Source: Coxiellaceae bacterium
GTDB taxonomy: Bacteria; Pseudomonadota; Gammaproteobacteria; Comchoanobacterales; Comchoanobacteraceae
Direction of reading: 5' to 3'
NCBI GenBank assembly: GCA_902603055.1
Contig: CACKTD010000001.1
Coordinates: forward strand, 248,001-312,000
Length of the DNA: 64,000 nt
Part shown: positions 3,001 to 51,220 of the stretch, one piece after another
Layout of the letters: each line of letters begins with the position of its first letter
Position numbering within the stretch: the stretch's first letter is position 1
The notes under the pieces: generated by a model
Database searches by the model: none
The model's input: the letters and a program-made list of their open reading frames with translations, nothing else
Told to the model about the DNA's origin: nothing
Made by a program: the position numbers and the translations under genes

Positions 3001-3530
3001 TTAGTGGTCCATTACAAGGTTCTAGATTTTTCACATCAACCTCAGGTGGTGAGTTAACCGGTTTCCTTGATCAGCAAATGACACTATCATTTGATTCAAT
3101 TTTGCTTTCTGGTGGGACAAAAACACAAGCAGTAACTGCTGTTGCAGTTGACACTAATACTGCTAGAAGTGCGTTGAATGGCGATGTAAATAATCATATC
3201 ATGCTCCGATATGGTTCATTAATATTAACATCATTTATATCGGGTGTTGGTGATGCGATTACAAACGCCGGTTCAACGAATACAACATCAGAGGGAACTA
3301 CAACAACAGTTTATGATGATCTTTCAAACCCTGAACTCATTACGGTTGGTTTAGGAAATGCTGCCAGTGATTTATCCGATTTTGTTGACCAATGGTCAGA
3401 TTTGGATCCAACAGTAACGATTAATTCGGGTACTGCAGTTGGAATTATGTTTACAACAGATACTGAGATTAAAGTTAGGGGTCAAAATGATTCGTATAGT
3501 GATCTCAATAGTTATTTAGATGTGAGATAG
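1..3530 (+). CDS. dotG: DotG/IcmE, Dot/Icm core-complex protein (5' end outside window)
   Basis: VirB10/TrbI-like protein that links inner and outer membranes in the type IVB secretion core. The reading frame is open to the left edge (codons for E-G-R-N-R-L-L precede the first visible Met at 24) and no Shine-Dalgarno lies before that Met. The true start is therefore probably upstream and the gene is partial. A membrane segment covers roughly the first 20 residues counted from the Met at 24. About 60 decapeptide repeats of the type AGFSAxxLKx fill residues 99-825, then a Gln-rich linker. The last ~240 residues look like the TrbI/VirB10 C-terminal domain. Five Cys-X22-Cys modules open the repeat blocks. 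DotF and DotE follow in the same order as the Legionella icmE-icmG-icmC genes. Identity is firm from the repeat type plus C-domain plus context. Confidence 0.93.
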   Translation, partial: EGRNRLLMVMLLGIVVLVGLYFGFAFLNSSTSDTSVTRTPRAPASISGVTGGDIANTQAAKLVEQQNRAKLQRAEQTGQSVVPVIIGRDVTGAPAPTNVETKENPCSLENVTRAREAGVSAFELKCQGCSAAVLKEAGYTAGELAAAGFSAKALMDAGFSAAQLKAAGFSAEDLLKAGFSPKQLLEAGYTAGELRNAGVTAAELKAAGLTASELRAAGFTADELKKAGFSDADIKAAGFNTSCPIKENENSRFKDCDQTSLAQDRSRGVSAKVQEQRNCSAYSLRAAGYTAGELKDAGYSARNLNSAGFSATDLKSQGFSLKQMIDACFTPTQLRAAGFSAKDLLDAGFSIADLKNAGFTAADMKAAGISAEALRAAGYSTKDLLNAGFSPAELMKSGFSCGEMYKAGSSVSDLKKAGCSAAELRKAGVSAQDLADAGYSLQDLKAAGFTNGDLFRAGLTKNQQPSANADDPDDLCAPAVLKQAFQRGISAKSLKDKGCSASALRNAGYTDRQLVDAGFSPAQLLKAGVDTDLDGNIPVVKDCSLASVKKAFQEGISASTLKKKGCSAAVLRAAGYSAAALRNAGFTPEEMKAAGFNVDAVPEKCTLETVKKAYENGVPAKKLYDMGCPASLLKQAGYTAEQLRAAGFSAAELKKAGFTAAELKAAGFSAAALKDAGFSASDLKAAGFSAADLRAAGFSAKDLKDAGFSAADLRNAGFSAAALKDAGFTASQLRDAGFSAGDLRNAGFSAKQLKDAGFSPKELAAAGFSAAQMAAAGFSAKDLKALGYSASDLVAGGFSPQELAAAGFTANELKGAGLTDDQLKQAGFSDAQIQAATGTTTAQPSAAQQQGQNQTQATTQEDDVRQRQAALQQQQLRQAQLSEINSAMQSVASNLINSWSQVNTQSFRQASFQPQDDTAANGSTSTTNQTTVLMADGSMQQIPSQTYTYDGKQRNSGRYKEANKLSNTASLRIPRGTMLYAVLDIGANSDEPSMVAATVVSGPLQGSRFFTSTSGGELTGFLDQQMTLSFDSILLSGGTKTQAVTAVAVDTNTARSALNGDVNNHIMLRYGSLILTSFISGVGDAITNAGSTNTTSEGTTTTVYDDLSNPELITVGLGNAASDLSDFVDQWSDLDPTVTINSGTAVGIMFTTDTEIKVRGQNDSYSDLNSYLDVR
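318..2507 (+). repeat. Decapeptide-coding tandem repeat array inside dotG
   Basis: Thirty-base units encode variants of AGFSAxxLKx, about 60 in all. They fall into five blocks beginning with cysteine codons at 318, 768, 1428, 1629 and 1815. The last block has about 22 units in an unbroken run, and these are the most alike. The others are more diverged. The repeats are coding and resemble the pentapeptide-like repeats known from DotG proteins. Confidence 0.9.
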
Positions 3531-3553: not shown

Positions 3554-4315
3554 ATGGCAGATAACGAAACATATGATTATCAGGGTGAAGATGAATCTGT
3601 AAATGATTATCAAACTTCAGGTGGTAGTTTAAACGATATTCCTCCCCCACAAGGTGGATCAAGTATGGGAAGTCGGTTGATCATTATTTTAGTATTTATG
3701 ATAATTGCATATGCAATTGGATATTTCTTAACAAACATGTCAGGTTCTACAAATACAGCACCAGTACAAGAGGTACCAAGTCCGATCGTGCCACAGCAAC
3801 AACCCCAACCAGCACCTCCACCACCTGTTCAAACAAAGGAGTTTAAGCTGGAAGATAGTGTTGTATTTAAAAACTTTCAGAAACAATCGCAACAGCAGGT
3901 TGATCAATTAAAGAGTCTGAATACTCAATTAGTACAACAAGTTAAGCAGATGAATGATCAGGTCCTAGCTGTTCAAGAAAGTGTAGCTAATGAATCTAAA
4001 AAACAAGTTGAAATGACTACCCAAATGGTAAATGAACTTCGAAACGAGTTGTATGATATCAGAGGGCGTGTAGCCGTTATTGAAGATAAATTGAAGCCTA
4101 AGCCTGTAGAAGTGCATAAAAAACTCAAGACTTTCTATTTAAGAGGGATCATTGAAGGGCGTGCATGGATTAATACACCTAAAGGGGAGAGTATGACGAT
4201 ACGAGTAGGTGATTCAATTCCTGATTATGGTAAAGTGACAGGTATCTTCCCTGATCAAGGCTTCGTTATGACTACGTCTAAAAGAATGATTGTTTTCTCC
4301 AGAAATGATACATAG
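3554..4315 (+). CDS. dotF: DotF/IcmG, Dot/Icm inner-membrane core component
   Basis: 253-residue bitopic inner-membrane protein of the Dot/Icm core, described in Legionella as a DotG partner. The cytoplasmic N-terminus is acidic (residues 1-30). One membrane span lies at about 41-60, followed by a proline/glutamine-rich stretch (about 69-92), a Gln-rich probable coiled coil (about 105-185) and a compact C-terminal domain (about 190-253). The start is supported by AGGAG six bases before the ATG. It begins 23 bases after dotG and its 3' end overlaps dotE, so the three genes are very likely one operon. The call rests on topology, composition and gene order more than on a signature motif. Confidence 0.82.
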   Translation: MADNETYDYQGEDESVNDYQTSGGSLNDIPPPQGGSSMGSRLIIILVFMIIAYAIGYFLTNMSGSTNTAPVQEVPSPIVPQQQPQPAPPPPVQTKEFKLEDSVVFKNFQKQSQQQVDQLKSLNTQLVQQVKQMNDQVLAVQESVANESKKQVEMTTQMVNELRNELYDIRGRVAVIEDKLKPKPVEVHKKLKTFYLRGIIEGRAWINTPKGESMTIRVGDSIPDYGKVTGIFPDQGFVMTTSKRMIVFSRNDT

Positions 4316-37899: not shown

Positions 37900-37928
37900 T
37901 TGACAGTGCTGTTGCATCTTGATTAGAT
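37900..37928 (+). promoter_or_regulatory. Promoter of the dotD-dotC-dotB operon
   Basis: A perfect -35 TTGACA (37900-37905), a 17-base spacer and TTAGAT (37923-37928). The predicted transcript start is near 37935, about 20 bases before the dotD ATG, with AGGAGG and AGGA between. Confidence 0.65.
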
Positions 37929-37954
37929 ATGTGAGTAGGAGGATAGGAATTCCA

Positions 37955-38482
37955 ATGATACGAATATGCGCAATTTTAATTGTGGCAAGCTTAACAGGGT
38001 GTGGACTACTACCACGAGATGAGCAAGTCACTTTTACTGAAAAAGATCTTAGAATGCCTGCGGTATCCGCTGCATCCAGAGCAGATCGTGATCGTAGCGA
38101 TATGGAGTTTCAAAACCTTATCAAACAAACAGCTGTCTCGTCCACACGTGCTGTTCAAAAGCTATCCCAATTAGAAAGAGCGGCAAAACCCTATGTCAGG
38201 CCAAAGCCGGCACCAAACCCGGTAAAACTTGGAATGGATCAGCGTGTTTCAATTGATTGGACGGGTCCCGTTGAGCCTGTGTTACAGCGATTAGCTGAAA
38301 ATGCACATTACCGTGTCAATACATTAGGCCAAGCACCAGTGGTGCCTATTTTGGTATCTTTGAATCGACAAAATACATTCTTATCTGATGTAATCCAAGA
38401 CATTTCTTATCAGATTCAGCGACAAGCCGATATTAACATCGTTGCTTCCGAGAAATTAATTGAATTGCGGTATCGTCGTTAA
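37955..38482 (+). CDS. dotD: DotD, Dot/Icm outer-membrane lipoprotein
   Basis: 175 residues. The lipoprotein signal is L-T-G-C with Cys at 16, and Gly at +2 suggests outer-membrane sorting. The C-terminal ~85 residues form the secretin-N-like domain known for DotD. DotD with DotC targets DotH to the outer membrane in Legionella. I choose ATG 37955 because the earlier in-frame TTG at 37919 lies inside the promoter. The stop overlaps the dotC ATG by one base (TAATG). Confidence 0.92.
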   Translation: MIRICAILIVASLTGCGLLPRDEQVTFTEKDLRMPAVSAASRADRDRSDMEFQNLIKQTAVSSTRAVQKLSQLERAAKPYVRPKPAPNPVKLGMDQRVSIDWTGPVEPVLQRLAENAHYRVNTLGQAPVVPILVSLNRQNTFLSDVIQDISYQIQRQADINIVASEKLIELRYRR

Positions 38483-39270
38483 TGAGATTCTTATTAGCTA
38501 TTTTAGTTAGTGTCATTATTGTAGGGTGCTCAAGTTCTACCCAATCTGCGGATGAGTCCTCTGGGATCGTACGTAAACAGATTATCACTGAGGAGGCCAT
38601 GTCTTTCGGTGCTCAGAATGCACTTGCTTATTATGGCACGCGTTATAATGTTATTCTTGAAAAAAATGCGAACCAATTGGATAATATTTTCAACTTCAGG
38701 CCTTTCATTTTAAAGAACAATGTATTGCCACCAGTCGTACGTCAGGCCCGTAATGATTTAAAGGTAGATGATCCCAATACGTTACGATTATCTGATCGCA
38801 TTATTGAAATTCTTACCCCTGCAAAATTTGTTACTACAGCACCGACTTGGCGAGATTATTTAGTTATGCCAATCCGTAGAGCTAACCTGCCTATGCAACG
38901 TCTTAGACCAACGAGTCGTGATGAATATAATACATGGGTTCAGAATGTTACGATTGGATGGGCTCAAGGAAGAAAGCAGGCTTATGATGTAATTAATAAA
39001 CGCTTGGCATTCCTAAAACGTGATTACACGGGTATGAGCTTATATTATCAATTATTAGTGCAGAATATGATTTCTGAGCCGCAAGTTGGTCGTTCCAACT
39101 TAGGTATTACTGGAAATAGTAAGAAGGTGCGTTTGAATGATCAATTGATGCGGATTACTGCTAATTCAGATCTCAAGCCACGTGGTGCCAATCACTGGGA
39201 GCCTGTGGTTGTGAGTGAAATGGAAGTGCCAAAACACGCCAGTGTTCCTACGGGAGAGTCTAGTAAATAA
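38482..39270 (+). CDS. dotC: DotC, Dot/Icm outer-membrane lipoprotein
   Basis: 262 residues. Lipobox I-V-G-C with Cys at 16 and Ser at +2, then a long periplasmic domain. The segments E-x-A-M-S-F-G-A-Q-N-A-L-A-Y-Y-G and W-x-N-V-T-I-G-W-A-Q-G-R-K-Q-A are typical of DotC-type proteins. It partners DotD and DotH in the outer ring of the core complex. It is coupled by one-base TAATG overlaps to dotD before and dotB after it. Confidence 0.93.
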   Translation: MRFLLAILVSVIIVGCSSSTQSADESSGIVRKQIITEEAMSFGAQNALAYYGTRYNVILEKNANQLDNIFNFRPFILKNNVLPPVVRQARNDLKVDDPNTLRLSDRIIEILTPAKFVTTAPTWRDYLVMPIRRANLPMQRLRPTSRDEYNTWVQNVTIGWAQGRKQAYDVINKRLAFLKRDYTGMSLYYQLLVQNMISEPQVGRSNLGITGNSKKVRLNDQLMRITANSDLKPRGANHWEPVVVSEMEVPKHASVPTGESSK

Positions 39271-40412
39271 TGGTCGAATCAACACCCCCACAGCCCGATT
39301 TATCGTTACTCATACCCAATGAGCCTCCCCGGATCCAAACCAGTGAGGATCTTGATTCCATTTTAGCTCATTGTTGCGAGCATAACGCATCAGATATCAC
39401 CTTTCAGACAGGTACTCATGTTATTGCGGATTGTTACGGTAAGTTATTACAAGTCACCAATCGACCTTTATCTAATAGTGAAGTTGGTCAGCTTTTAAAT
39501 TCAATCTATGGATCTAATGGTACGACACAGCTACTCAGTGGAGTAGATATTGATACTTATTATGAGTTTAGGCCAAATCGTTACATGCGTTATCGATTTA
39601 GGGTTAATGGTACTGCCTGTCTGGTAGAAGGACATGATGGTATACAAATTACACTGAGGAGTATTCCTATTGATCCACCAGAATTAAGTTCATTGGATTT
39701 ACCTCAGCCTATTCTTGAAACAATTAAGCCTCAAGATGGTGTTGTTTATGTTTGTGGAACTACTGGTTCTGGTAAAAGTACGCTTTTAGCTTCAATTATT
39801 CGAGATATTATCGAGGAGCCTGAGTGTCATCGTAAGATTTTAACATATGAAGCACCCATAGAATTTGTGTATGACAATATTACAAAGCTTTCAGCCATTG
39901 TAAGTCAGTCTGAGATACCAAGGCATATACCTTCATTTGCTGATGGGGTACGTAATGCATTACGTCGTAAACCACGATTGATATTGGTTGGTGAAAGTCG
40001 TGATTCTGAAACCATTAATGCGGTTATCGAGGCGGCTTTAACAGGACACCCAGTATATACGACTGTTCACAGTAATGGTGTGGGTGAAACTGTTAGACGA
40101 TTGGTTGGTAGTTTTCCTCAAGAGGAGCGTTACGCTAAAAGCATTGATATTATGGAAACAGCTCGACTCATTGTTTGGCAAATGCTTGTACCAGCAACCA
40201 ATGGGCAACGTGTTGCTTTGAGAGAATTTTTATCATTTGATGAAGAAACACGAGACATTTTGTTGAAAAAAGATTTAGAGCGTGTTGCTGATTTTGCGCG
40301 TGAAATGGTGATTGAAAAAGGTCAATCCATGTTAGATGATGCGAAAAAGAAATTCGAAGAAGGGCTGATTGAACAAAGAACATTGGATATTATTAAAAAA
40401 GGGTTTGAATAA
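39270..40412 (+). CDS. dotB: DotB, Dot/Icm hexameric ATPase
   Basis: 380 residues (Legionella 377). It is a cytoplasmic PilT/VirB11-like ATPase that docks on DotO at the base of the apparatus. Walker A is G-T-T-G-S-G-K-S-T (about 162-170). Further motifs are the Asp/Glu boxes around T-Y-E-A-P-I-E-F-V, Walker B L-I-L-V-G-E-S-R-D and the His box T-G-H-P-V-Y-T-T-V-H-S-N. It overlaps dotC and the following Cache-protein gene by one base each (TAATG). Confidence 0.97.
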   Translation: MVESTPPQPDLSLLIPNEPPRIQTSEDLDSILAHCCEHNASDITFQTGTHVIADCYGKLLQVTNRPLSNSEVGQLLNSIYGSNGTTQLLSGVDIDTYYEFRPNRYMRYRFRVNGTACLVEGHDGIQITLRSIPIDPPELSSLDLPQPILETIKPQDGVVYVCGTTGSGKSTLLASIIRDIIEEPECHRKILTYEAPIEFVYDNITKLSAIVSQSEIPRHIPSFADGVRNALRRKPRLILVGESRDSETINAVIEAALTGHPVYTTVHSNGVGETVRRLVGSFPQEERYAKSIDIMETARLIVWQMLVPATNGQRVALREFLSFDEETRDILLKKDLERVADFAREMVIEKGQSMLDDAKKKFEEGLIEQRTLDIIKKGFE

Positions 40413-40975
40413 TGCGTAAAATTTTTATAGGAGTAATGTTGCTCATTTCAATGACTGGTAGCTCTTTTGCAACTTGGTCTTCTAAGTATAGTATGCTGAC
40501 AGAATATGCAACACGAATTGCAGATGCTATTAAAGTTGACATCGATGAACATACGTTAACAGATGGTCAGATATATACGTATTTATCCTCATTGGTATCA
40601 TATGATAATCGTATCTGGAGTGCCACGATCGGATTTTCACCAGAGTTTTTTAAAAATAGAGAGAATCGTCAGTGGTGGATTTCAAAACAGTGGCAAAATA
40701 ATTACAAGCAATCAAGAAAAGAGCTCTATGCGCCTTATGTTTGGCGTAATATGGATAATCTTCTTACTGCTGCAGATATTGGAGATCTAACCAGTAATTT
40801 TGGATATGATTATACTGATACGAAGTGGGATTGGTGGCATCGTACAATGGAAAGCCAGAAACCAACGTGGTCAGGTCCCTATAGCAGTAATCTTACTGGG
40901 CACTCCATGATTACGTATAGCGTACCGATACGCAAAGATGCTGTATTAAGCTTTAATGTTTGGTATAACCCTTAA
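40412..40975 (+). CDS. Secreted single-domain Cache-like protein
   Basis: 187 residues. A signal peptide covers about 1-20 (ends S-F-A, then T). The mature part reads like an extracytoplasmic Cache sensor domain: a helical start, I-Y-T-Y-L-S-S-L-V-S-Y-D-N-R-I-W-S-A-T-I-G-F, then Y-A-P-Y-V, D-Y-T-D-T-K-W-D-W-W, and W-S-G-P-Y followed by M-I-T-Y-S-V-P-I. It stops right at the domain end. No membrane anchor, kinase, HAMP or chemoreceptor part follows. Its ATG shares one base with the dotB stop, so it is translationally coupled to dotB, and a dotA-like gene follows. I infer a periplasmic ligand-binding partner of the Dot/Icm machine; function is unproven. Confidence 0.7.
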   Translation: MRKIFIGVMLLISMTGSSFATWSSKYSMLTEYATRIADAIKVDIDEHTLTDGQIYTYLSSLVSYDNRIWSATIGFSPEFFKNRENRQWWISKQWQNNYKQSRKELYAPYVWRNMDNLLTAADIGDLTSNFGYDYTDTKWDWWHRTMESQKPTWSGPYSSNLTGHSMITYSVPIRKDAVLSFNVWYNP

Positions 40976-40998: not shown

Positions 40999-43908
40999 GT
41001 GTGGAAATTGTTTTTTAGAGTATCACTCCTTTTTTGTATTGCATCAACACTGGCTGATATGACAGAGGGCCAACAATTTCTTATTCCATCTGCCAATGAC
41101 CTTTCTTTAAAATACCTTGGAACAATGTTTGGTGCTGTTGGCAACAATTTTACCGGCTTTGTTAACCCTCTGATGGCCCAAGTTTTTACGATCTATAATT
41201 ATGGAATTCTTTCAATTGCAATGATTGTATTGGGATATACACTAACCTTCGTAGTTGTCAATGATATGACTTCTGGCCAACCATTAGCTCAGCATATGGA
41301 CGTCTCATCGGTATCGCGTGTTGTGATTGGTAATGGAATGTTGCTGCCTGTCTACAATGGCTATTCGTTCATTCAGGTTATTTTGATGCAAGTAGTAATT
41401 TCTGGTGTAGGTTTGGCAGATAATCTATGGTCCAATGTGATTGGATTAATTAATACAAATAGTGTTATGAGTACCACTTCAACTACTGATTTAACGACAT
41501 ATGTGACTAACGATGTATTAGGGCAAGACGTGAACCTTGCTCCAAGTACTGCTAGCACCAATGATGCTACCAATATCGCAAATGTTTTGACATTATTCGG
41601 TTATGCAATTTGTGGTGAAACCCAATATCGTAATGATGCAATTTCTGATAGTACAGTATCTAGATCAGATTATCAGTGGCGCTGTAATGGTTATACCTGT
41701 CAAGTGGGTAAAAATGGTGATTGTGCGACCATTCAGTTAGTAAATACTGATACACTGACACCAACCCAATTATCTGCAGCTTCTAATTCATTGGGGGCAG
41801 CAATAGCGTCTATAAATTCTTATGTTATTAATCTTTACGATGCAGGGTTTGCTGCTGGAAATGATTTTGCAACCATTTTAAATTGCCCATTGAATGGGGT
41901 GCAGGGTGCTTGTGATCAAGGAAGTACGTTGGGTTTGAATGCGTTATCTTATTTCGAAGGGTTGCAAAGTAATGCGTACACCACACAGCAGTCAGGTAAT
42001 TGTAGTTCATCCACTGACGATGCTATGCAAGATAGTATTAATAATGGATGGGTAACTGCTGGCACCTATCTTCTGCAACTGATGAGTCTTCAAGGCGATG
42101 ATTCTTGTACAGAGAAGCAAGTATTTGATGAGAATTTATTGTTAGCGATGATGTATCGATTGACGGGTGTTAACACTAATTACTCTCCTGCAAATAGCAC
42201 CGGTACACGCTTTTATTCTATGTACCAATACATGGCGTCCACTGCTGGAATTAATCCAAGTGTTAGTTCTAATAGTTATAACTGGACTGCGATGGTTTCA
42301 GCAGCAAATGATTTTTCACCGTCACCGTCTTCCTCAGTCACATATACTGTTTATGGTGAAGCAGCAGCTCAATATGTTTCAGAATATTATGCTCAAGAGT
42401 CCAGTTCGAGTTCCAGTTTTAATTGTAGTGGTAGTAGTAATGAAAACCCATACTTAGATACCGCGTTGAGTGTGCTCTATAATAACTGGTTAAAATATCA
42501 AGCAAATCAAGGGCCCTATGACTCGTTTGATTTGGATGCAGAATCCTTTTTAACGGCTAAGCTAGATTTTGCGAATACTGCTGAGCCAATTTATATCTCA
42601 ATTTATCAGCGTAATTTATTTATGTTACTAAATAGAACGATGGAAGATTTAACTGGATTAATGTATTTTCCAGATGATAGTAGTCAGGCTTACAGTGCTA
42701 ATTACTATAATTCCAATATTTCTCAATTAAGTAGTAATTGTAGTAATTCATCTCAACCACAAGGTTGTTATTGTGCTTTAGTAAATAGTAAGGGTGTTGT
42801 TAATAGTGGTCAGGGATTATTTGGTTCACTGGTTGCACAATCCCAAGGCTATAATATTGATGCACTTCGTATGATTCAGGCAATGGGAACAAACATGTTA
42901 AATCATGGTGTATTATCGATTACCCAGACCTATTCAGATGCATTGGATTTACAGTCAAGTATTGGAGCAGGTTATGCAACTGCTGCAGCCATTACAGCAA
43001 CACCTTATATGTTGATGGTTACAACGTTATTTATCTTTGCAGGTAATGTATTTAGTACATCATTAGCATCGATGGCTAGTGTTGGTTTGGAGATGCTTAA
43101 TAAAACTTGGCGCTTTATGCAGGATTTGGATTATTTAAATGCATTTCTTTTCCAACCCATCAGTTCTACTTTTTCTGCATTGATTCCAGTTTTTGGTCTA
43201 TTGTTGGGGGTTTATGTTCCAGCAATTCCAGCAATTTATCATTTGTTTGGTGTCATAGCTTGGATGATTGCTGTTATTGAGCTTATGATTGCAGCGCCTG
43301 TGATTGCGATGGCGATGTCAACGACAACTGGCCACCAAATTGCAGGTAATGCTGAACCTGCTTTGGTTTTGATTTTACAGATATTTTTGAGGCCAGCACT
43401 CATTATCTTTGGCCTGATGTCAGGACTCTTATTGTCTAATGTGGTGTTAAGTTTATTAAATCAGTCAATGGTGGCATTTATTGCAAGTTTTTCTGCCTCA
43501 TTTCAAACAGTCACAGGACAAGTAAGTGCTGCATCCATGTTGATTGCTACGGGTTTGGCGGTGGTGTTTTATGGCTATGTTGTTACAACACTTGTTGCTA
43601 ATTGCTATTCGCTTATATTCCGACTCAACGATCGAATTTTACAATACGTTGGTGGTCAGATTGAATACTCTGGACTTGAGGAAATGATTAAAGGTGTTCG
43701 TTCAGATACGATGGGTAAATTCAGTGCAGCAGCAAGTTCTGGTACTCAATTTGATCCAGGTGATGCTAAGGGTACTGGTTATCAAATTGATCCAGGCAGA
43801 AATTATCAGGGTGATCAGGATGAAGCCGCTGGCGGAGGTGGTGGCGAAGGATCCGGTGGTGGAGGCTCCGGTGGTGGAGGTGCTGGAGGCGCTCCAAGCA
43901 GTAAATAA
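40999..43908 (+). CDS. dotA: DotA/TraY-family membrane protein, copy 1
   Basis: 969 residues (Legionella DotA 1048). A signal peptide covers about 1-19. The N-terminus has S-A-N-D-L-S-L-K-Y-L-G-T-M-F-G, as in DotA, with spans near 70-90 and 125-150. A large Ser/Thr/Cys-rich periplasmic region (about 155-640) follows, then a cluster of spans (about 655-905) with A-A-P-V-I-A-M-A-M, G-H-Q-I-A-G-N-A-E-P and F-L-R-P-A. The tail is glycine-rich (43831-43893). The start is GTG with AGGA eight bases upstream. It likely ends the dotDCB-Cache operon. Confidence 0.88.
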   Translation: MWKLFFRVSLLFCIASTLADMTEGQQFLIPSANDLSLKYLGTMFGAVGNNFTGFVNPLMAQVFTIYNYGILSIAMIVLGYTLTFVVVNDMTSGQPLAQHMDVSSVSRVVIGNGMLLPVYNGYSFIQVILMQVVISGVGLADNLWSNVIGLINTNSVMSTTSTTDLTTYVTNDVLGQDVNLAPSTASTNDATNIANVLTLFGYAICGETQYRNDAISDSTVSRSDYQWRCNGYTCQVGKNGDCATIQLVNTDTLTPTQLSAASNSLGAAIASINSYVINLYDAGFAAGNDFATILNCPLNGVQGACDQGSTLGLNALSYFEGLQSNAYTTQQSGNCSSSTDDAMQDSINNGWVTAGTYLLQLMSLQGDDSCTEKQVFDENLLLAMMYRLTGVNTNYSPANSTGTRFYSMYQYMASTAGINPSVSSNSYNWTAMVSAANDFSPSPSSSVTYTVYGEAAAQYVSEYYAQESSSSSSFNCSGSSNENPYLDTALSVLYNNWLKYQANQGPYDSFDLDAESFLTAKLDFANTAEPIYISIYQRNLFMLLNRTMEDLTGLMYFPDDSSQAYSANYYNSNISQLSSNCSNSSQPQGCYCALVNSKGVVNSGQGLFGSLVAQSQGYNIDALRMIQAMGTNMLNHGVLSITQTYSDALDLQSSIGAGYATAAAITATPYMLMVTTLFIFAGNVFSTSLASMASVGLEMLNKTWRFMQDLDYLNAFLFQPISSTFSALIPVFGLLLGVYVPAIPAIYHLFGVIAWMIAVIELMIAAPVIAMAMSTTTGHQIAGNAEPALVLILQIFLRPALIIFGLMSGLLLSNVVLSLLNQSMVAFIASFSASFQTVTGQVSAASMLIATGLAVVFYGYVVTTLVANCYSLIFRLNDRILQYVGGQIEYSGLEEMIKGVRSDTMGKFSAAASSGTQFDPGDAKGTGYQIDPGRNYQGDQDEAAGGGGGEGSGGGGSGGGGAGGAPSSK

Positions 43909-43933
43909 CGGAGTATTCTGCAATGATATTTCG

Positions 43934-43962
43934 TTGTGTTTTGTTTTGAATAAACGTATAAT
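43934..43962 (+). promoter_or_regulatory. Promoter of icmV and the second and third dotA-like genes
   Basis: TTGTGT (43934-43939), a 17-base spacer and consensus TATAAT (43957-43962). The ATG of icmV is 11 bases beyond the -10, so the leader is only about five bases. Confidence 0.7.
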
Positions 43963-43973
43963 CTTTGATTAGT

Positions 43974-44408
43974 ATGGCAGGTTTTTTTCGAGGGACATTC
44001 AAACGGCACTTCAACTTCAGTCAATGGATTGGGTTAAAGTTCATATTTAGTTCGTTCAGAGTTATCCCAAACATTATCAATGGAATTGCTAACCCACCAA
44101 AAGCAGAGTATTCAGAGAGTTTTGAGCAGGCTGTTGTGAGGTTAGGCTTGAAAAAGGAGGACCTCAATCGACGTTTGAAAGAGTACTTTTGGACATCTGT
44201 ACTTTATCTAGTTTTGGGGTTGGCGTGTTTCTTTTATGCAGCATCATTTATACCAGCAGGGCTTTTCAATGGATTTCTGATGGCAACAATCGTTGGCTTT
44301 ATATTCATAGCTCATGCATTTAGATCGCATTTTTGGTATGCCCAAATCTCTAAAAAACGTTTAGGTATGACGATCTCAGAGTGGGTATGCTTTTTATTCG
44401 GTATCTAA
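43974..44408 (+). CDS. icmV: IcmV, Dot/Icm inner-membrane protein
   Basis: About 144 residues (Legionella 151). A basic amphipathic N-terminus, the pattern S-F-E-Q-A-V-V-R-L-G-L-K-K-E-D-L, two spans (about 70-92 and 97-116), then H-F-W-Y-x-Q-I and R-L-G-M-T-I-S-E-W. This is the arrangement I know from IcmV. I take ATG 43974; a TTG at 43965 lies within a few bases of the -10 box. In Legionella icmV leads icmW and icmX, with dotA diverging. Here it is followed by a dotA-like gene and neither icmW nor icmX is present nearby. Confidence 0.85.
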   Translation: MAGFFRGTFKRHFNFSQWIGLKFIFSSFRVIPNIINGIANPPKAEYSESFEQAVVRLGLKKEDLNRRLKEYFWTSVLYLVLGLACFFYAASFIPAGLFNGFLMATIVGFIFIAHAFRSHFWYAQISKKRLGMTISEWVCFLFGI

Positions 44409-47400
44409 TATTCCTGTTTTTTTTGGGCTGTAATTTAGCATTAGCCCAATCGACTCAAACCGTTCAATCCGTTTGTGGTGCACCACAATTATTTGAATTT
44501 AGCTCAAGTGATGTCTCAATTGCTTACTTAAATAATATTTTTGGTGGTATTCCAAGAATCTTATGCACTGGTGCAGACAATATGCTCATGCAACAGGTAT
44601 TTACCATTTATAATCTAGGTGTGTTAGTCATCGTTGGTGTGATTTTAATTTATGGAACGGTTGTTGTTGTGATGCAAACCTCTCAACAAGGGGCGCAAAT
44701 GGGTAGGAAAATTAGTCCATTTGCAGCATTGCGTGTTGTTTTTGGGGCATCACTATTAGTGCCAATGGCCAACACAGGCTATTCGGCTATACAGGCATTC
44801 ACTATGTGGATGATTACTCAAGGTATTGCCTTTGCAGATCAACTTTGGATTGCTGCTTTAGAGAATTATGAAGCATCTGGGGGATTGTATTCTTCGACTG
44901 TTCAAAGCGATACTTTTTATTCTGCTGCAAGTGTACCCATAATGTGTCCAGGTTCTTCGGGTAGTACTGATTGCCAGGTAACTTCAGCAAATGGTGATAC
45001 AAATATTGTTTTCTCATTAGATCGTCTTACTGCAGCAACCATTTGTACACAGGCTTGGTATCAACAGGACCTTCAAGATGATCCATCAACATCTAGTGGA
45101 AACTATGGAATGTTTATGGATTCAACTTGTAATTCGGGTGCGAATGGTAGCTTTAGAGGTGTTTGTTTTGGTAAAAGAGGCAGTGATTCAACAGCCACTA
45201 ATTATCAGTCTGATATTCAACGGTGTGGCGTTGCATTTGCACCCATGGAGCCTGGTACTACCAATTCATGTTCTCAGGATTCATCTAATTCGGATTGTGC
45301 AACTAATTATCTAGCCATTCAAGATGTTTATAATAACATCAGCTCATTTGTTCGTACGACATTTCAAACAGCTATGAGTAACTTTGAAATGAACAACAGT
45401 CAAAACGATGTTGCAAACTTTTTAGCCTGTGTCAGTGGTACATTTGGCACTACACCAACAGAAAGTTGTGCACAATCGATTACTTATGGAAATATTTCTA
45501 CGATTTATTTGACAGATTTGGGGAACCAAATTTATGATGATAGCTCATCATCATCCAACACTTCAAATGATTGTTCGACGTTGATTGATGAAGCAAAGCA
45601 GGCAGGGTGGGTAATGGCTGGACGTTACTATACTGGATTGGCATCTTGCTCTAATGATAGTAGCTCGACTTCAGCACAGGGTTCAACAGAATCAAGTACT
45701 ACTGTAAATACCGATAATGTTAAAGCAGCAATGTTTTTAAGTGATCGACCAACCAGCAGTCCTGCTATTTCCTGTGATAGTAATCTTTATGCCAGTGATG
45801 GACCATTATCTAGTTCATCGGGATCTCCCCAGCAAGTCTATAATGCGTATATGTATGGATCCTATTCATCGGCAGATGGTTGGTCTTTTAACACATCATC
45901 CCAATCATGTTTTGGGATGCTGTCTACTTATTATACGGGTTCTTCAACAGCAGACCAAGAAACCTATGGGAATGCGTATTTAGCTTCGCTTGCTCCTGAT
46001 TCAAATGTTAATGAAGATTCTCCACAATGTCCTGCAAGTGTTGAGACGAGTTTAGACAATGCAATTTATAATTTATCTCAGTATTGGCTCGAGCAGAATG
46101 CGAACTCAGATGCGTATAGTAATTGGGCATTGACAGGTTCAGCTTCCTATTCAATTTGGGCACAAGGTCTTGATAGTAGTTTTGACCCTGCAGAGACTTA
46201 CAACACCTCTGTTCCACAACAAAATTTATTCATGTTATTAAACTATACAGCATCCCAATTGACAGGCTTAAAATATTTTAAAGATGAAAAACAGACTACA
46301 TTTTATGACGGTGGACTGAGCGGTAATATTCGTTCTGGTGACTGGAGTGATGCGTGTGCAAATGGTGCGACTGGATGCTGGGTTAATGCATGTCAAAATA
46401 ACTTAATACACACTCCTCATGGTATTTTTGGAATGATTAATGCAAATCTTATCGGTCAGATCGTGGATCCAGTAGCCCAATTAAAATACATGGGTATCAA
46501 TATCATGAGTTGGGGGGTGACATATTTTGATCAAACTATTGGACAAACCATTCAGTCTACTATAAACATTGCTGGTTTGTATGCCGGTGTTCAAATTGCA
46601 TTAGCGGCTGTTATGACAGCGGTTGTTGGTGCATCCGCAGCTAGCCCCGCACCAAGTATTCCACTTGCAGTTGGGCAAATTGCCAATTTCCTTTTATCAA
46701 CCTATGGATCAATTGCACAAATTTATTTAACAATCGATAATACGCATTTGAATTTATTTAATGGCTTAGCTTCATCTGTTGCAGTTATTTATACAATGCT
46801 TGGGTTCTATTTGGGTGTTTATGTTTCTAATATCGCTGCAATTATCTGGGTATTCGCAGTAATTGGATATTTCATTCTAGTGATTGAGGCAATGGTTGCA
46901 GCACCCATTGCAGCAATGGGCTTAGCCAGTGTTGAAGGTCATGATTTATTGGGTAGTGCAACGCCCTCAGTATTATTGTTATTCGCAATTTTCATTAGAC
47001 CTGCTGGGATGATCTTGGGGTTGATCTTTGGGATAGCTATTTTGATTCCGGCATTTAATCTAGTGAATTTTGTATTTATAGCAATTTTAGGTGATTTGTT
47101 TAACTTCTTCTCTCAACAAGGATTTAAAGCTGGAAGTGTTGTTGCTCTGATGGGCGCAGTAGGAGTGCTTCTCCTTTATGCTTATCTTGCAATGACCGTA
47201 GTCAATGCATGCTTTAGTATGATCTTCTCATTGATGGATAAACTGCCCAAATGGATTGGTGGTTCACCAGAACAATCAGGTATTGCCCAGCAAGTCTCTG
47301 AAGTTAAACAGCAAGCAGGTGGTGCTGGTGAAAAAGCTGCTCAGGGTGGAGCACAAGCTACAGGTACTGCTGGAAGACAGGTTAGTGGTGGTCAAGTATC

Positions 47401-47617
47401 GGCTGCATCAGGATGGAAGGGTGGTGAAAAGGAGAAAAGCTCTGGTGTGACTGGTGATGAGTCTGGTGGTGGCGATGGCGGAGAAGGTAGCAAAGGCACT
47501 GGCGCAGACGGTAGCAAAACTAATGAAATGACGGGTCAAAATACTATAGACCCTAACAGTACTGGCGGAGGCTCCGGTAACAATGGCTCCAGCGGTGGCG
47601 ATGGTAAAAAACAATAG
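44387..47617 (+). CDS. dotA: DotA/TraY-family membrane protein, copy 2
   Basis: About 1076 residues, closest in length to Legionella DotA. The signal peptide ends A-L-A, then Q. The periplasmic region (about 160-700) is long and Ser/Thr/Asn/Cys-rich. The C-terminal membrane cluster holds V-E-A-M-V-A-A-P-I-A-A-M-G, G-H-D-L-L-G-S-A and F-I-R-P-A. The G-H-D-x-L-G form is what I recall for canonical DotA, so this may be the true orthologue. The tail of about 130 residues is Gly/Lys/Ser-rich. The start overlaps the 3' end of icmV by about 22 bases (ATG 44387; an in-frame GTG at 44381 is also possible). The third copy begins three bases after it. Confidence 0.9.
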   Translation: MLFIRYLIFLFFLGCNLALAQSTQTVQSVCGAPQLFEFSSSDVSIAYLNNIFGGIPRILCTGADNMLMQQVFTIYNLGVLVIVGVILIYGTVVVVMQTSQQGAQMGRKISPFAALRVVFGASLLVPMANTGYSAIQAFTMWMITQGIAFADQLWIAALENYEASGGLYSSTVQSDTFYSAASVPIMCPGSSGSTDCQVTSANGDTNIVFSLDRLTAATICTQAWYQQDLQDDPSTSSGNYGMFMDSTCNSGANGSFRGVCFGKRGSDSTATNYQSDIQRCGVAFAPMEPGTTNSCSQDSSNSDCATNYLAIQDVYNNISSFVRTTFQTAMSNFEMNNSQNDVANFLACVSGTFGTTPTESCAQSITYGNISTIYLTDLGNQIYDDSSSSSNTSNDCSTLIDEAKQAGWVMAGRYYTGLASCSNDSSSTSAQGSTESSTTVNTDNVKAAMFLSDRPTSSPAISCDSNLYASDGPLSSSSGSPQQVYNAYMYGSYSSADGWSFNTSSQSCFGMLSTYYTGSSTADQETYGNAYLASLAPDSNVNEDSPQCPASVETSLDNAIYNLSQYWLEQNANSDAYSNWALTGSASYSIWAQGLDSSFDPAETYNTSVPQQNLFMLLNYTASQLTGLKYFKDEKQTTFYDGGLSGNIRSGDWSDACANGATGCWVNACQNNLIHTPHGIFGMINANLIGQIVDPVAQLKYMGINIMSWGVTYFDQTIGQTIQSTINIAGLYAGVQIALAAVMTAVVGASAASPAPSIPLAVGQIANFLLSTYGSIAQIYLTIDNTHLNLFNGLASSVAVIYTMLGFYLGVYVSNIAAIIWVFAVIGYFILVIEAMVAAPIAAMGLASVEGHDLLGSATPSVLLLFAIFIRPAGMILGLIFGIAILIPAFNLVNFVFIAILGDLFNFFSQQGFKAGSVVALMGAVGVLLLYAYLAMTVVNACFSMIFSLMDKLPKWIGGSPEQSGIAQQVSEVKQQAGGAGEKAAQGGAQATGTAGRQVSGGQVSAASGWKGGEKEKSSGVTGDESGGGDGGEGSKGTGADGSKTNEMTGQNTIDPNSTGGGSGNNGSSGGDGKKQ

Positions 47618-47620
47618 ACC

Positions 47621-50600
47621 ATGTTTCGTACTTTCCTGATTGCTTTAACCCTATTAATTCCTGCTGTATTTGCTCAGGATCAACCGGTTAATCCATTAGA
47701 AACTGTTAATACGTTTTTACAAAGTAATGCAGGGGATGTCGCTGAAAACCGAGCTGCTGTAGTTTCTATGGTTCAGTCGTTCTTTAAACCGAGTGATGGC
47801 TATTTTAATCCCCAAGTATTTAACCCTGATTTTGGGTCTGGTGAAGTCAATGATTTATCGATTCAATACCTTACTCAAATATTTGGTGTTATTCCAGGTG
47901 TTCTGTCATCATCCAGCGCCCCATCGACTATATTGAGCACGATGTTTTATGTGTTTAATGTGGGCTTGATGGCTATTTTGGGTTTATTACTTGCCTTTAC
48001 AATTGTCGTTGGTACTGCTGAAACTGCCGCACAAGGTGAGTTTATGGGGCGAAAACAACAGGCACCCCAATTTCTGATTTTTAGAAATGTATTAAGTGTG
48101 GCGCTATTAGTGCCTCAATTTAATAACTATAATGCGATCCAATATATGATCATGTCTGTTGCTACACAAGGTGCTTATTTTGCTGATTCCTTGTGGGGTG
48201 AGGTTGAGAACATTGTCAATGTTTCAGGATCTGTTGTGCCTTTTGTGAAACTTGCACCACAACAGACAAATGTCTCTGATAACACAAGCGCAGACTCTGA
48301 AGATATGGTGATTAATAATTTTAAAAATGCCAATTTATCCACCACAATTACGGCTACTGAAAATATTTTAAAGTTTCATGCATGTGTTGATTATTATTTA
48401 CAGGTCCAACAGCAAAGTTATGATCAGTGCGTTCAATACTATGGTGATACCAATGAAAAAGTTGTGTGTGCACAAACAACACGTTGCGATATTCTAAATA
48501 TTGATCAATCCACCTATACAGTTTCTCTTAAATCGCTTAGTATGCCGCCACAGGATACGGGTGCAGGTAGTCAGGCTCCAATATGTGGAAACTTAACTTT
48601 AAATTTAACAGCCATCAATGACATCGATACTAAAAATGAATACTGGCAGATATTCTTGGATGAGTTGTTCTATCCTTTGGCAGGCTCTAATAACAGTAAT
48701 TTTTATAATTGTGGTTATGATTCAGCAACTACGACGCCACCCCCTTATAATGCAAATAACTTATTGTATTCTCCGATTTATGATGCGTATTACAATTGTG
48801 AAGATGGAACAACATGTACACCACCAACATATGTTGATGACCCTGCTTGTCAAAGTCAGTTTACTCAAGGTGATCCATTTACCTGTGGAGGCACCAACGC
48901 AACGGATATTGCTGATTCAGTTGTAGCAGAGGATTTTGTTGGTAATCCAAATATTTATAACAATACAGTAGGGCAGTCATCATCAACATCTGCCTCACCA
49001 CAAGGTTCGATTGTTGATAATTATTTACAGGCTTTAGGTGAACAATCTTGGACGGTCTCGAGTGATACAAACAACACCTCCACAACAGGAAGTTCTCAGT
49101 CATACTTAAGCTTTGTGCCTGGTGGCTGGATCACAGCTGGAACAAGCTATTCGACATTAGCATTCCATTTGGTGAATTTAAGTACAAACCCTGTGATGAC
49201 GTATCCTCCCATTCAGCTAAAAAGCTATTCAGCAGGTAACACTAGCTTTCAGGATATTGATCAATATATTCTACCTTCTGCTACCTATGACCTGAATCCC
49301 TCTTCAACAAGTGCTCCAACGACTCCATTTTCTTTCGATCTTTTTATGCAGACATGGTATTCACTAAATCCCTATCCGATGCAAGCAAACTCAACCGCTA
49401 CCACCACAGGCTCTCCTTATGCAGTTGGGTGGGCTATTTATGCTTGTCTGACTGGTGCCAGTGAAGTTTATGGACAAAAGTGTAGTGACTTCCCAATGTA
49501 TCCATCTGATCCAAGTAGCTCGGTTACAAGTATTCCAATGCCGAATAGTGATCCAACCTATCCTCTGAATAATCCCATTCCTGATGATGTTAAAATGCAT
49601 AATCTACAGGATCCAGGTTCAACCACTGACCCAAGTAGTCCATCCAATAGTAGTACTTATTTCCCAGAGTTTTATTTGCCACTAGGCTTTATCTCTGCGG
49701 GTTACAACTACATGTATAATCAGTATAGCCCTCCAAGCTCAGATTCCTCATCCAGTTCATCTTCATCAAGTGGCGGCTTAATAGGTAATCTTGTGACAGG
49801 CTATAACAAAATGGTTGATGGAACGACTGATTTAGCAGATACGACTGCAGATTCTTTCAAATGGTATTTTGGACAATTTAGCTATCAAGATGTTTTTGGA
49901 GATGCCGTAAATACATATATTAATCGCTTGATCATGGCATCTACGGTTGCATTTTTTGGTGGATATGATGCCTTTTCACTCGTGGACCCTGTGTTTAGGA
50001 TGCAAAACTATGGTTTAAGTATTATAGATATATCTCTAACTTACTTTAGTGCTGTAATCAGTAAGGCTATAAATTTTGCATCTGATGTGTTGTTCACGTG
50101 GTTCCTAACAGTACAGATACTAGTTTATGCTTTAACGTTGATTACGATATTAGGGTCAGCCATAGCAATGTTACTTTATACGCTTGCTATGTGGCTTATA
50201 GCTACGGGGGTGGGCCTTCTGGGCTCGATACTTCTAATTCCAGTAGGAATTATACTTATTGCACTTGGTGTTGTTGTACTCTTTACATCGATGACAGTAC
50301 TCTTTTTATTCTACGCAGGGTCCATGACGATGACTGTGATTTGTTCATTGGTTCCTATCTATTTGCAGTTTTTGTTTTTAACCGTATTTAAATGGTTTGA
50401 TGTTTATGTTTATTTGGCTATTCCTCTATTTATCTTAGGTGGATATATGGGTATTTTTGTAGCATTGGCACCATTTTTAGTATTCTTAATGACTGTTACA
50501 GGTTGGTACTTTTTAGTAGTTGAAGCCATGATAGCAGGGCCAATAATTGCTTTAGGTATTGCTTATGCTCAGGCCTCTCATGATGTGTTCGGGCGTTCTG

Positions 50601-51220
50601 AAGCATTGGTATCTTTGCTAATTATCCTATTTTTAAGGCCAGCAGCTATTGTGATTGGTTTTATATTTGGGATTATTCTAGCTTCTGCCTCACTTTATTT
50701 ATTAAATATTATTCTATTCCCAGTCTTTGTTGATATGATCGGGTATGTATGGGGTAATCCTGGCCTCAGTTTGACCTTAAGTGAAGCATTCTTAAGTGGG
50801 GATAATGCTGCTGGACAGGCTTTAAATCTAGATACAACTCAGCTTTTAACATTATGGGGTGTTGGGATGTTGTATGCATACATTGCAGCATCTGTTGTAT
50901 ATCAATGTTTTAGTTTAACCTATGTAGTACCGTTTAGAATGATTCGTTGGATTGACCCTAGAGCAGGGGAAAGTATTGAGGAAGTTCAAGGAAGCATGAA
51001 TGATGCTAAACAACTTTTTGTGCAGGAGTTTGTTACAGGATTAGCCAATGGGATTGCCAGCCTCACTCAACTTTCACAGAGAATGTTTGCTATGGTTGGT
51101 GCGCATACGGGTACAGGCGGTGCTTTCCAACAACCTAGTGTAGATACAACATTGCCTGATACCTCTGGATCTGATCAAGCGCCATCGGCTTCAGGCACAA
51201 ACACTACAAAATCAGAATAA
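47621..51220 (+). CDS. dotA: DotA/TraY-family membrane protein, copy 3
   Basis: 1199 residues, the longest of the three. The signal peptide ends V-F-A, then Q. The N-terminal part has L-S-I-Q-Y-L-T-Q-I-F-G-V and G-E-F-M-G-R-K-Q. The periplasmic region is very large (about 190-750) and rich in Ser, Thr, Asn, Pro and Cys. The membrane cluster at about 820-1105 is longer than in the other copies, with extra spans around 820-950. Its signature is V-E-A-M-I-A-G-P-I-I-A-L-G, S-H-D-V-F-G-R and F-L-R-P-A, with His-Asp kept but Gly replaced by Ser. The tail is polar, not poly-Gly. It is co-transcribed with icmV and copy 2. Confidence 0.87.
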   Translation: MFRTFLIALTLLIPAVFAQDQPVNPLETVNTFLQSNAGDVAENRAAVVSMVQSFFKPSDGYFNPQVFNPDFGSGEVNDLSIQYLTQIFGVIPGVLSSSSAPSTILSTMFYVFNVGLMAILGLLLAFTIVVGTAETAAQGEFMGRKQQAPQFLIFRNVLSVALLVPQFNNYNAIQYMIMSVATQGAYFADSLWGEVENIVNVSGSVVPFVKLAPQQTNVSDNTSADSEDMVINNFKNANLSTTITATENILKFHACVDYYLQVQQQSYDQCVQYYGDTNEKVVCAQTTRCDILNIDQSTYTVSLKSLSMPPQDTGAGSQAPICGNLTLNLTAINDIDTKNEYWQIFLDELFYPLAGSNNSNFYNCGYDSATTTPPPYNANNLLYSPIYDAYYNCEDGTTCTPPTYVDDPACQSQFTQGDPFTCGGTNATDIADSVVAEDFVGNPNIYNNTVGQSSSTSASPQGSIVDNYLQALGEQSWTVSSDTNNTSTTGSSQSYLSFVPGGWITAGTSYSTLAFHLVNLSTNPVMTYPPIQLKSYSAGNTSFQDIDQYILPSATYDLNPSSTSAPTTPFSFDLFMQTWYSLNPYPMQANSTATTTGSPYAVGWAIYACLTGASEVYGQKCSDFPMYPSDPSSSVTSIPMPNSDPTYPLNNPIPDDVKMHNLQDPGSTTDPSSPSNSSTYFPEFYLPLGFISAGYNYMYNQYSPPSSDSSSSSSSSSGGLIGNLVTGYNKMVDGTTDLADTTADSFKWYFGQFSYQDVFGDAVNTYINRLIMASTVAFFGGYDAFSLVDPVFRMQNYGLSIIDISLTYFSAVISKAINFASDVLFTWFLTVQILVYALTLITILGSAIAMLLYTLAMWLIATGVGLLGSILLIPVGIILIALGVVVLFTSMTVLFLFYAGSMTMTVICSLVPIYLQFLFLTVFKWFDVYVYLAIPLFILGGYMGIFVALAPFLVFLMTVTGWYFLVVEAMIAGPIIALGIAYAQASHDVFGRSEALVSLLIILFLRPAAIVIGFIFGIILASASLYLLNIILFPVFVDMIGYVWGNPGLSLTLSEAFLSGDNAAGQALNLDTTQLLTLWGVGMLYAYIAASVVYQCFSLTYVVPFRMIRWIDPRAGESIEEVQGSMNDAKQLFVQEFVTGLANGIASLTQLSQRMFAMVGAHTGTGGAFQQPSVDTTLPDTSGSDQAPSASGTNTTKSE

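What the first reader, a model, noticed from the sequence alone, without database searches (positions are those of the whole stretch)
40999..51220. Three different dotA-like genes in tandem
The sequence shows three long proteins (969, about 1076 and 1199 residues) of the same plan: signal peptide, DotA-like N-terminus, huge periplasmic loop and a C-terminal membrane cluster with a shared A-[AG]-P-[IV]-x-A, [GS]-H and [FI]-[LI]-R-P-A signature. Legionella and Coxiella carry one dotA, as far as I know. The copies differ strongly in the periplasmic loop and tail. That suggests separate roles (different cargo, different hosts, or a hetero-oligomeric pore) rather than a recent duplication. Copy 2 keeps G-H-D-x-L-G and may be the true DotA.
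Basis: partly seen in the sequence, partly recalled or inferred. Interest (0 to 1): 0.72.

Follow-up and report, generated by a model that had tools for sequence, protein, structure and literature searches.

The report
Mixed-subunit DotA secretion channel array
A small-genomed marine bacterium, of a group that includes obligate partners of choanoflagellates, carries three very different versions of the gene for DotA, the channel subunit of the Legionella-type injection machine, side by side, and most relatives examined carry two to four, so its channel is likely built from unlike rather than identical subunits.

Summary
Three intact, co-directional genes (969, 1078, 1199 residues) all score above the DotA/TraY cut-off (TIGR04346), with icmV between copies 1 and 2 and dotD-dotC-dotB upstream. 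The genome belongs to Ca. Comchoanobacterales (UBA7916), marine protist associates. The array is order-wide: 13 of 14 genomes hold at least two dotA-like genes (up to 4); the other is cut by a contig end. Copy 3 belongs to a lineage with a member in 12 of 14 genomes; copies 1 and 2 are sisters that split before the two nearest relatives diverged. Recent triplication is rejected (AU p 2e-44). In 10 of 10 relatives with icmV assembled, the copy after icmV keeps the motif HPEGHD; 24 of 25 other copies lack it. Copy 2 is thus the positional DotA, though it reads SVEGHD. Tandem dotA arrays arose in at least seven other lineages (up to five copies; one is Legionella massiliensis), usually beside one icmX. 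My best reading, untested, is a channel of unlike DotA subunits under a mostly single IcmX, convergent with the tandem VirB6 genes of Rickettsiales. My searches of open-licence papers found no description of dotA multiplication.

The parts
37919..38482 (+). dotD (outer-membrane lipoprotein of the Dot/Icm system)
   Evidence: NCBIfam NF033882 135.9 bits (cut-off 140), Pfam PF16816 85.6 bits (cut-off 27)
38482..39270 (+). dotC
   Evidence: Pfam PF16932 T4SS_TraI 206.4 bits; named dotC from its place and family, recalled
39270..40412 (+). dotB ATPase
   Evidence: TIGR02524 570.1 bits, cut-off 463.3; plasmid TraJ model 251.5
40412..40975 (+). PDC/Cache-domain protein with a signal-peptide-like start, inside the array, lineage-specific
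   Evidence: PF22673 54.4 bits; homologues only in G001, G002, G011 of the loci compared
40999..43908 (+). dotA copy 1 (sister of copy 2; motif drifted to TTGHQIAG)
   Evidence: TIGR04346 179.2 bits; trees; AlphaFold model matches 9ngy DotA E 9.4e-16
43965..44408 (+). icmV
   Evidence: NF038219 93.3 bits, cut-off 100; one match in each of 11 of 14 family genomes, none in 3
44381..47617 (+). dotA copy 2, positional DotA (overlaps icmV by 28 bases; EGHDLLG kept)
   Evidence: TIGR04346 209.6 bits, NF033886 274.3 bits; icmV-dotA order as in single-copy relatives
47621..51220 (+). dotA copy 3, member of the order-wide B lineage
   Evidence: TIGR04346 133.8 bits; B clade of 12 rows 99/96; AlphaFold model matches 9ngy DotA E 6.4e-10
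24..3530 (+). dotG/icmE, part of the same machine, second dot/icm cluster
   Evidence: NF033900 1026.7 bits, cut-off 750; dotM, dotI and an icmQ-like gene lie just left of the window
3554..4315 (+). dotF/icmG-like
   Evidence: NF038218 119.8 bits, cut-off 200

Best explanation
[quoted passage not shown] Comchoanobacterales bacterium, and their products likely assemble together into one channel of unlike subunits. Shown: homology of all three to DotA, one co-directional gene run, divergence older than the split from the nearest relatives, arrays across the order in genomes of about 1 Mb, one detected icmX in this genome, and the canonical motif kept in relatives by the copy after icmV. Taken from papers: Legionella DotA forms a pentamer with IcmX that opens into the effector channel. 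Inferred: the copy after icmV (copy 2 here) keeps the core DotA function, copies 1 and 3 take other positions of the same ring, and their divergent periplasmic loops change the wall or gate of the channel under a shared IcmX cap. Stoichiometry and effect on cargo are unknown.
For: All three pass TIGR04346. 9ngy DotA is the only meaningful PDB match by sequence (copy 1's glycine-rich tail also hits engineered linkers) and, for copies 1 and 3, the only Foldseek match at E <= 0.001. Gene spacing from dotB to dotA3 runs from a 28-base overlap to a 56-base gap, consistent with co-expression. 13 of 14 family genomes hold at least two copies. The B lineage (copy 3) has a member in 12 of 14 genomes, 99/96 support. 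Complete Comchoano-1 (G003) has 4 DotA and one detected IcmX; G000 and G001 have 3 DotA and one detected IcmX. Of 10 multi-dotA loci outside the order, 7 show one IcmX-like ORF beside the array and 3 none. HPEGHD sits in the copy after icmV in 10 of 10 relatives with icmV assembled, and in 1 of the 25 other family copies in the tree (G009). DotA-IcmX is a pentamer (PMC12981334; PMC12857230; passages only). Rickettsiales keep 4-5 tandem, strongly diverged VirB6 genes and have no VirB5 (PMC2653234, PMC7648143, PMC11077975; passages only).
Against: No evidence of co-assembly was obtained; no complex could be predicted here. G009 has apparently three IcmX-like genes for three DotA and G006 two for four, which fits paired alternative channels. 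IcmX identity is itself weak: the public model hits 7 of 14 family genomes, none over its cut-off, and my profile 9 of 14, so diverged copies may be missed. In the five-copy arrays elsewhere every paralogue keeps the canonical motif, so 'one canonical plus partners' is not general. In this very genome no copy keeps HPEGHD. None of the three reaches the NF033886 T4SS_DotA cut-off of 500 bits. The AlphaFold models are of modest confidence (mean pLDDT 68.8 and 56.6) and superpose poorly on 9ngy overall (TM-score 0.26-0.38). Expression of the three copies together was not tested.
Confidence: 0.45

Rival explanations
1. Alternative channels: each DotA copy makes its own homopentamer, used in different host cells, life stages or for different cargo, and the copies share or each have an IcmX partner.
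For: G009 has three DotA and apparently three IcmX-like genes, G006 two IcmX-like genes; loops diverge most between copies (15-24% identity); in the L080/L090 arrays all five copies keep the full motif.
Against: Copies sit in one tight gene run, with one icmV in each of the 11 genomes where it was found; G000, G001, G003, G007 and G010 have one detected IcmX for 2-4 DotA, and 7 of 10 multi-dotA loci outside the order one; 24 of 25 family copies not directly after icmV lack HPEGHD, a motif in 33 of 57 DotA rows outside the order.
Confidence: 0.27
2. Only the copy after icmV is the channel; the other copies are accessory or exported proteins that keep the DotA fold but act elsewhere, for example at the cell surface.
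For: Absence of the canonical motif in 24 of 25 other family copies; DotA is reported to be released from Legionella (PMC12981334) and VirB6-3/VirB6-4 of Anaplasma to be surface exposed (PMC7648143, passages).
Against: N- and C-terminal membrane blocks are kept in all three copies and are more conserved between G000 and G001 orthologues (43-56%) than the loop (32-36%), as expected for a membrane part of the machine; the copies stay in the dot gene run.
Confidence: 0.2
3. Passing tandem duplications with no function, or an assembly artefact.
For: Copy number varies between relatives (2 to 4), and copies 1 and 2 arose within one sub-lineage.
Against: Long open frames are kept in every array read; three orthologous sets in three genomes of two genera; G000-G001 identity 32-56% by region; an array also in the complete Comchoano-1 chromosome; AU test rejects recent triplication.
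Confidence: 0.03

Closest known systems
DotA of Legionella/Coxiella Dot/Icm (DotA/TraY family, TIGR04346; structure 9ngy)
   Same: Family score above cut-off, N-terminal and C-terminal membrane blocks, linkage to icmV and dotDCB, the only meaningful PDB match by sequence and (copies 1 and 3) by predicted fold.
   Different: Three (in relatives 2-4) old, divergent copies instead of one; below the DotA equivalog cut-off; motif HPEGHD not intact in any of the three.
RvhB6a-e / VirB6-1 to -4 of Rickettsiales (extended VirB6 of a type IVA system)
   Same: Tandem array of 4-5 long, strongly diverged copies of the VirB6-class channel subunit, kept across an order of intracellular bacteria (PMC2653234, PMC7648143, passages).
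   Different: Another protein family and T4SS class; no Pfam VirB6/TrbL match to the three proteins at E <= 1; Rickettsiales lack VirB5, whereas an IcmX-like gene is present here.
pT4SSi of Ca. Comchoanobacter and Ca. Synchoanobacter (Needham et al. 2022, PMC9418006)
   Same: Same order and kind of machine; the paper reports all its pT4SSi genes expressed in a Pacific metatranscriptome.
   Different: The main text has no occurrence of dotA, and the passages seen do not discuss copy number; its Fig. 4a was not available to me and may show the genes.
TraY of IncI conjugation
   Same: Same superfamily model TIGR04346.
   Different: Neighbours are dotB (570 bits against TraJ 251) and icmV (93 bits against TraX 19), so a Dot/Icm system.

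Membership tests
DotA/TraY family (TIGR04346) | Score above the curated cut-off of 100 bits | tested here: met
   179.2, 209.6, 133.8 bits
T4SS_DotA equivalog (NF033886) | Score above the curated cut-off of 500 bits | tested here: not met
   249.9, 274.3, 230.1 bits; L. longbeachae DotA scores 1084
DotA of a Dot/Icm system | Linked to icmV and other dot genes | tested here: met
   dotD, dotC, dotB, icmV in the same run; dotG, dotF, dotM, dotI in the second cluster
DotA of a Dot/Icm system | DotA fold | tested here: met
   Sole Foldseek match at E <= 0.001 is 9ngy for copies 1 and 3; models of modest confidence, TM-score 0.26-0.38; copy 2 by sequence only
DotA of a Dot/Icm system | Motif HPEGHD in the C-terminal cluster (a marker chosen here, not a curated rule) | tested here: not met
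   0 of 3 window copies; 11 of 36 family rows; 33 of 57 rows outside the family
DotA of a Dot/Icm system | Pentamer with IcmX in the channel | not testable with these tools
   An IcmX-like gene is present at G000:C4:28594-30633; assembly not testable
VirB6/TrbL (RvhB6 type) | Pfam VirB6/TrbL domain match | tested here: not met
   No such Pfam match at E <= 1 for any of the three

The most novel reading that the evidence does not exclude
The DotA ring of Comchoanobacterales is an obligate hetero-pentamer: one canonical subunit tied to icmV plus specialised partners, under a mostly single IcmX cap. Multiplying the VirB6-class channel subunit would then be a convergent, repeated way for intracellular bacteria to build asymmetric injection channels, seen in Rickettsiales (RvhB6) and separately in at least eight Legionellales-related lineages.
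Probability: 0.33. Interest if true: 0.82.

Novelty: new variant of a known kind. Interest (0 to 1): 0.62.

Why it matters
The Dot/Icm channel is pictured as five identical DotA chains. Retention of several old DotA types across an order with genomes of about 1 Mb, and repeated separate dotA arrays elsewhere, suggest that subunit diversity in the channel is selected. It mirrors the unexplained VirB6 multiplication of Rickettsiales in another T4SS class and gives several natural systems, one with a complete genome, in which to test whether T4SS channels can be asymmetric.

Tried and rejected
Rejected: (1) recent local triplication (AU p 2.2e-44). A softer version, all nine copies of G000-G002 as one clade, is rejected only marginally (p 0.041), so the depth of the B lineage rests on tree support (99/96) and on its presence in 12 of 14 genomes. 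(2) An unrelated membrane family for copies 1 and 3. (3) 'IcmX lost in five family genomes': my IcmX profile hits 9 of 14, and RuvB, encoded close to icmX, hits the same 9 of 14, so in the other five that locus is probably just unassembled. (4) A limit of five copies: G055 has six DotA-like genes, four in the array and two elsewhere. (5) The 867- and 855-residue neighbours of icmX in G005 and G013 as sure IcmX paralogues: below the inclusion threshold. Led nowhere: first genome-contig scan with a single sequence; first big tree (MAFFT timeout); two paper searches on dotA copies returned the chelator DOTA. Not used: viral contigs, search_dna_similar (phages, plasmids, E. coli) and the search for homologous proteins.

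Rows dropped: the 42-row tree left out DotA-like ORFs under 780 aa (6 of 48). For the 93-row tree I listed 33 of the 77 named loci (13 with several copies or two contigs, 20 single); one, L076, apparently the G029 locus again, was switched off, and ORFs under 650 aa were left out. G004's first copy, in a frame with N, and G011's end-cut copy are in no tree. The 10 of 67 count of arrays comes from the best 80 of 132 matches of one scan and is no census.
Full report
Observation. The window carries three long ORFs on the + strand at 40999-43908, 44381-47617 and 47621-51220 (969, 1078, 1199 aa). hmmscan puts all three above the DotA/TraY family cut-off (179.2, 209.6 and 133.8 bits; cut-off 100), but none above the stricter T4SS_DotA equivalog cut-off (249.9, 274.3, 230.1; cut-off 500). 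All three match the solved Legionella DotA (9ngy/9nh0) by sequence. Between copies 1 and 2 lies icmV; upstream, in one co-directional run with spacings from a 28-base overlap to a 56-base gap, lie dotD, dotC, dotB and a PDC-domain protein with a signal-peptide-like start. dotG, dotF and a TraQ-like gene lie at the left end of the window, with dotM, dotI and an IcmQ-like gene beyond it. So the genome (977 kb in 24 contigs, 73.8% complete) holds a Dot/Icm system.

Which organism. Needham et al. 2022 (PMC9418006; abstract and passages seen) describe these two as obligate associates of a marine choanoflagellate with an expressed Coxiella-like T4SS. The word dotA does not occur in its main text; its Fig. 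4a was not available to me.

The array is order-wide. Of the 14 genomes of the family, 13 show at least two DotA-like genes: three in this genome, in G001 and in G002 (copy 3 of G002 appears split over two contig ends), four in Comchoano-1 and Comchoano-2, two or three (some cut by contig ends) in seven others, and at least two in G004 (one in a frame with N). G011 shows one that runs into a contig end. Of 40 other genomes of the class in the same search, 6 had a match, and five of these show one DotA ORF and G036 two.

Tree. A maximum-likelihood tree of 93 DotA rows on 309 columns places copy 3 in a clade of 12 rows with one member from each of 12 family genomes (support 99/96; I call it B). 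Copies 1 and 2 are sister sets of three (98/91), each uniting G000, G001 and G002 (100/100 and 100/99). A first tree of 42 rows shows the same groups. Holding the three window copies together is rejected (p 2.2e-44). Holding the nine copies of G000-G002 together is rejected only marginally (p 0.041), so the depth of the B lineage is likely, not certain. In this genome the copies share 28-41% identity in the N-terminal block, 15-24% in the loop and 19-29% in the C-terminal cluster; each copy and its G001 orthologue share 45-56%, 32-36% and 43-52%.

Which copy is DotA. In single-copy relatives (G029, G037, G042, G043) dotA follows icmV directly, and in a Legionella longbeachae locus likewise. 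Copy 2 follows icmV here. icmV was found in 11 of 14 family genomes. In the 10 besides this one, the copy directly after icmV reads HPEGHD in all 10; of the other 25 family copies in the tree one (G009) does. Copy 2 in this window reads SVEGHD, copy 1 TTTGHQ, copy 3 AQASHD. So copy 2 is the positional DotA, and even it is drifting.

IcmX. Papers report that Legionella DotA forms a pentamer with IcmX that opens into the translocation channel (PMC12981334, PMC12857230; passages; the primary paper is not held). The public IcmX model hits 7 of 14 family genomes, none over its cut-off; a profile built here hits 9 of 14, the same nine in which ruvB, encoded close by, is assembled. This genome, G001, Comchoano-1, G007 and G010 have one detected IcmX for 2-4 DotA. 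Comchoano-2 has two, G009 apparently three (one in pieces at two contig ends), and G005 and G013 one plus a doubtful neighbour. Of 10 multi-dotA loci outside the order, 7 show one IcmX-like ORF by the array and 3 none. A whole-genome search with the public model finds one in 5 of 13 multi-copy genomes (two of the 13 are Comchoano-1 and -2) and none in 8; that model misses the IcmX of Comchoano-1, so its silence means little.

Recurrence. Of 67 named loci outside the order (from the best 80 of 132 matches of one scan, so no census), 10 hold two or more DotA ORFs of 650 aa or more. Whole-genome counts: 5 in each of two Coxiellaceae MAGs, 6 in a third (4 in the array), 3 in SW_17, 2 side by side in each of five uncultured genomes and in Legionella massiliensis, and 2 on separate contigs in one more. 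G036 has 2 side by side. In the tree the paralogues group by lineage, which makes at least seven origins besides Comchoanobacterales.

Folds. AlphaFold models of copies 1 and 3 (mean pLDDT 68.8 and 56.6; loop of copy 3 largely below 50) find 9ngy DotA as the only PDB match with E <= 0.001 (9.4e-16, 6.4e-10). Overall superposition is poor (TM-score 0.26-0.38), so this confirms kinship, not detail.

Mechanism. The most likely reading is a mixed channel: old, divergent DotA types kept together in one gene run, with one icmV and usually one detected IcmX, and in the relatives one more canonical member tied to icmV. The parallel is the Rickettsiales rvh system, with 4-5 tandem, strongly diverged extended VirB6 genes kept across the order and no VirB5 (PMC2653234, PMC7648143, PMC11077975; passages). 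[quoted passage not shown] not held). Alternative homomeric channels and accessory or surface roles remain open.

Novelty. I found no description of dotA multiplication in the searches made (open-licence PMC papers only; listings seen, papers opened only where cited). The Berkiella genome paper names dotA once, without a copy number (passages). I file it as a new variant of a known kind of machine.

Noticed in passing
40412-40975: A PDC/Cache-domain protein (PF22673) with a signal-peptide-like start sits between dotB and dotA1; found only in G000, G001, G002 and G011 of the loci compared, where dotB and dotA1 run in the same direction.
   Followed up: partly
18944-21940 and 21986-25327 (-): Two adjacent proteins of 998 and 1113 residues with no NCBIfam or Pfam match at the thresholds used and no significant similarity to each other.
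   Followed up: partly
G000:C4:28594-30633 (L148) and L144-L151, L164, L165: IcmX-like ORFs of Comchoanobacterales are long (547-799 aa against 464 in L. longbeachae), lie close to ruvC-ruvA-ruvB, and are multiplied in Comchoano-2 (2) and apparently G009 (3).
   Followed up: partly
L127: Legionella massiliensis carries two intact dotA genes side by side that are each other's sisters in the tree.
   Followed up: partly
L080, L090: Two Coxiellaceae MAGs carry five dotA genes in one tandem array, all with the motif HPEGHD.
   Followed up: partly
36490-37884: A methyltransferase-like protein with weak TPR hits at its C-terminus lies just upstream of dotD.
   Followed up: no
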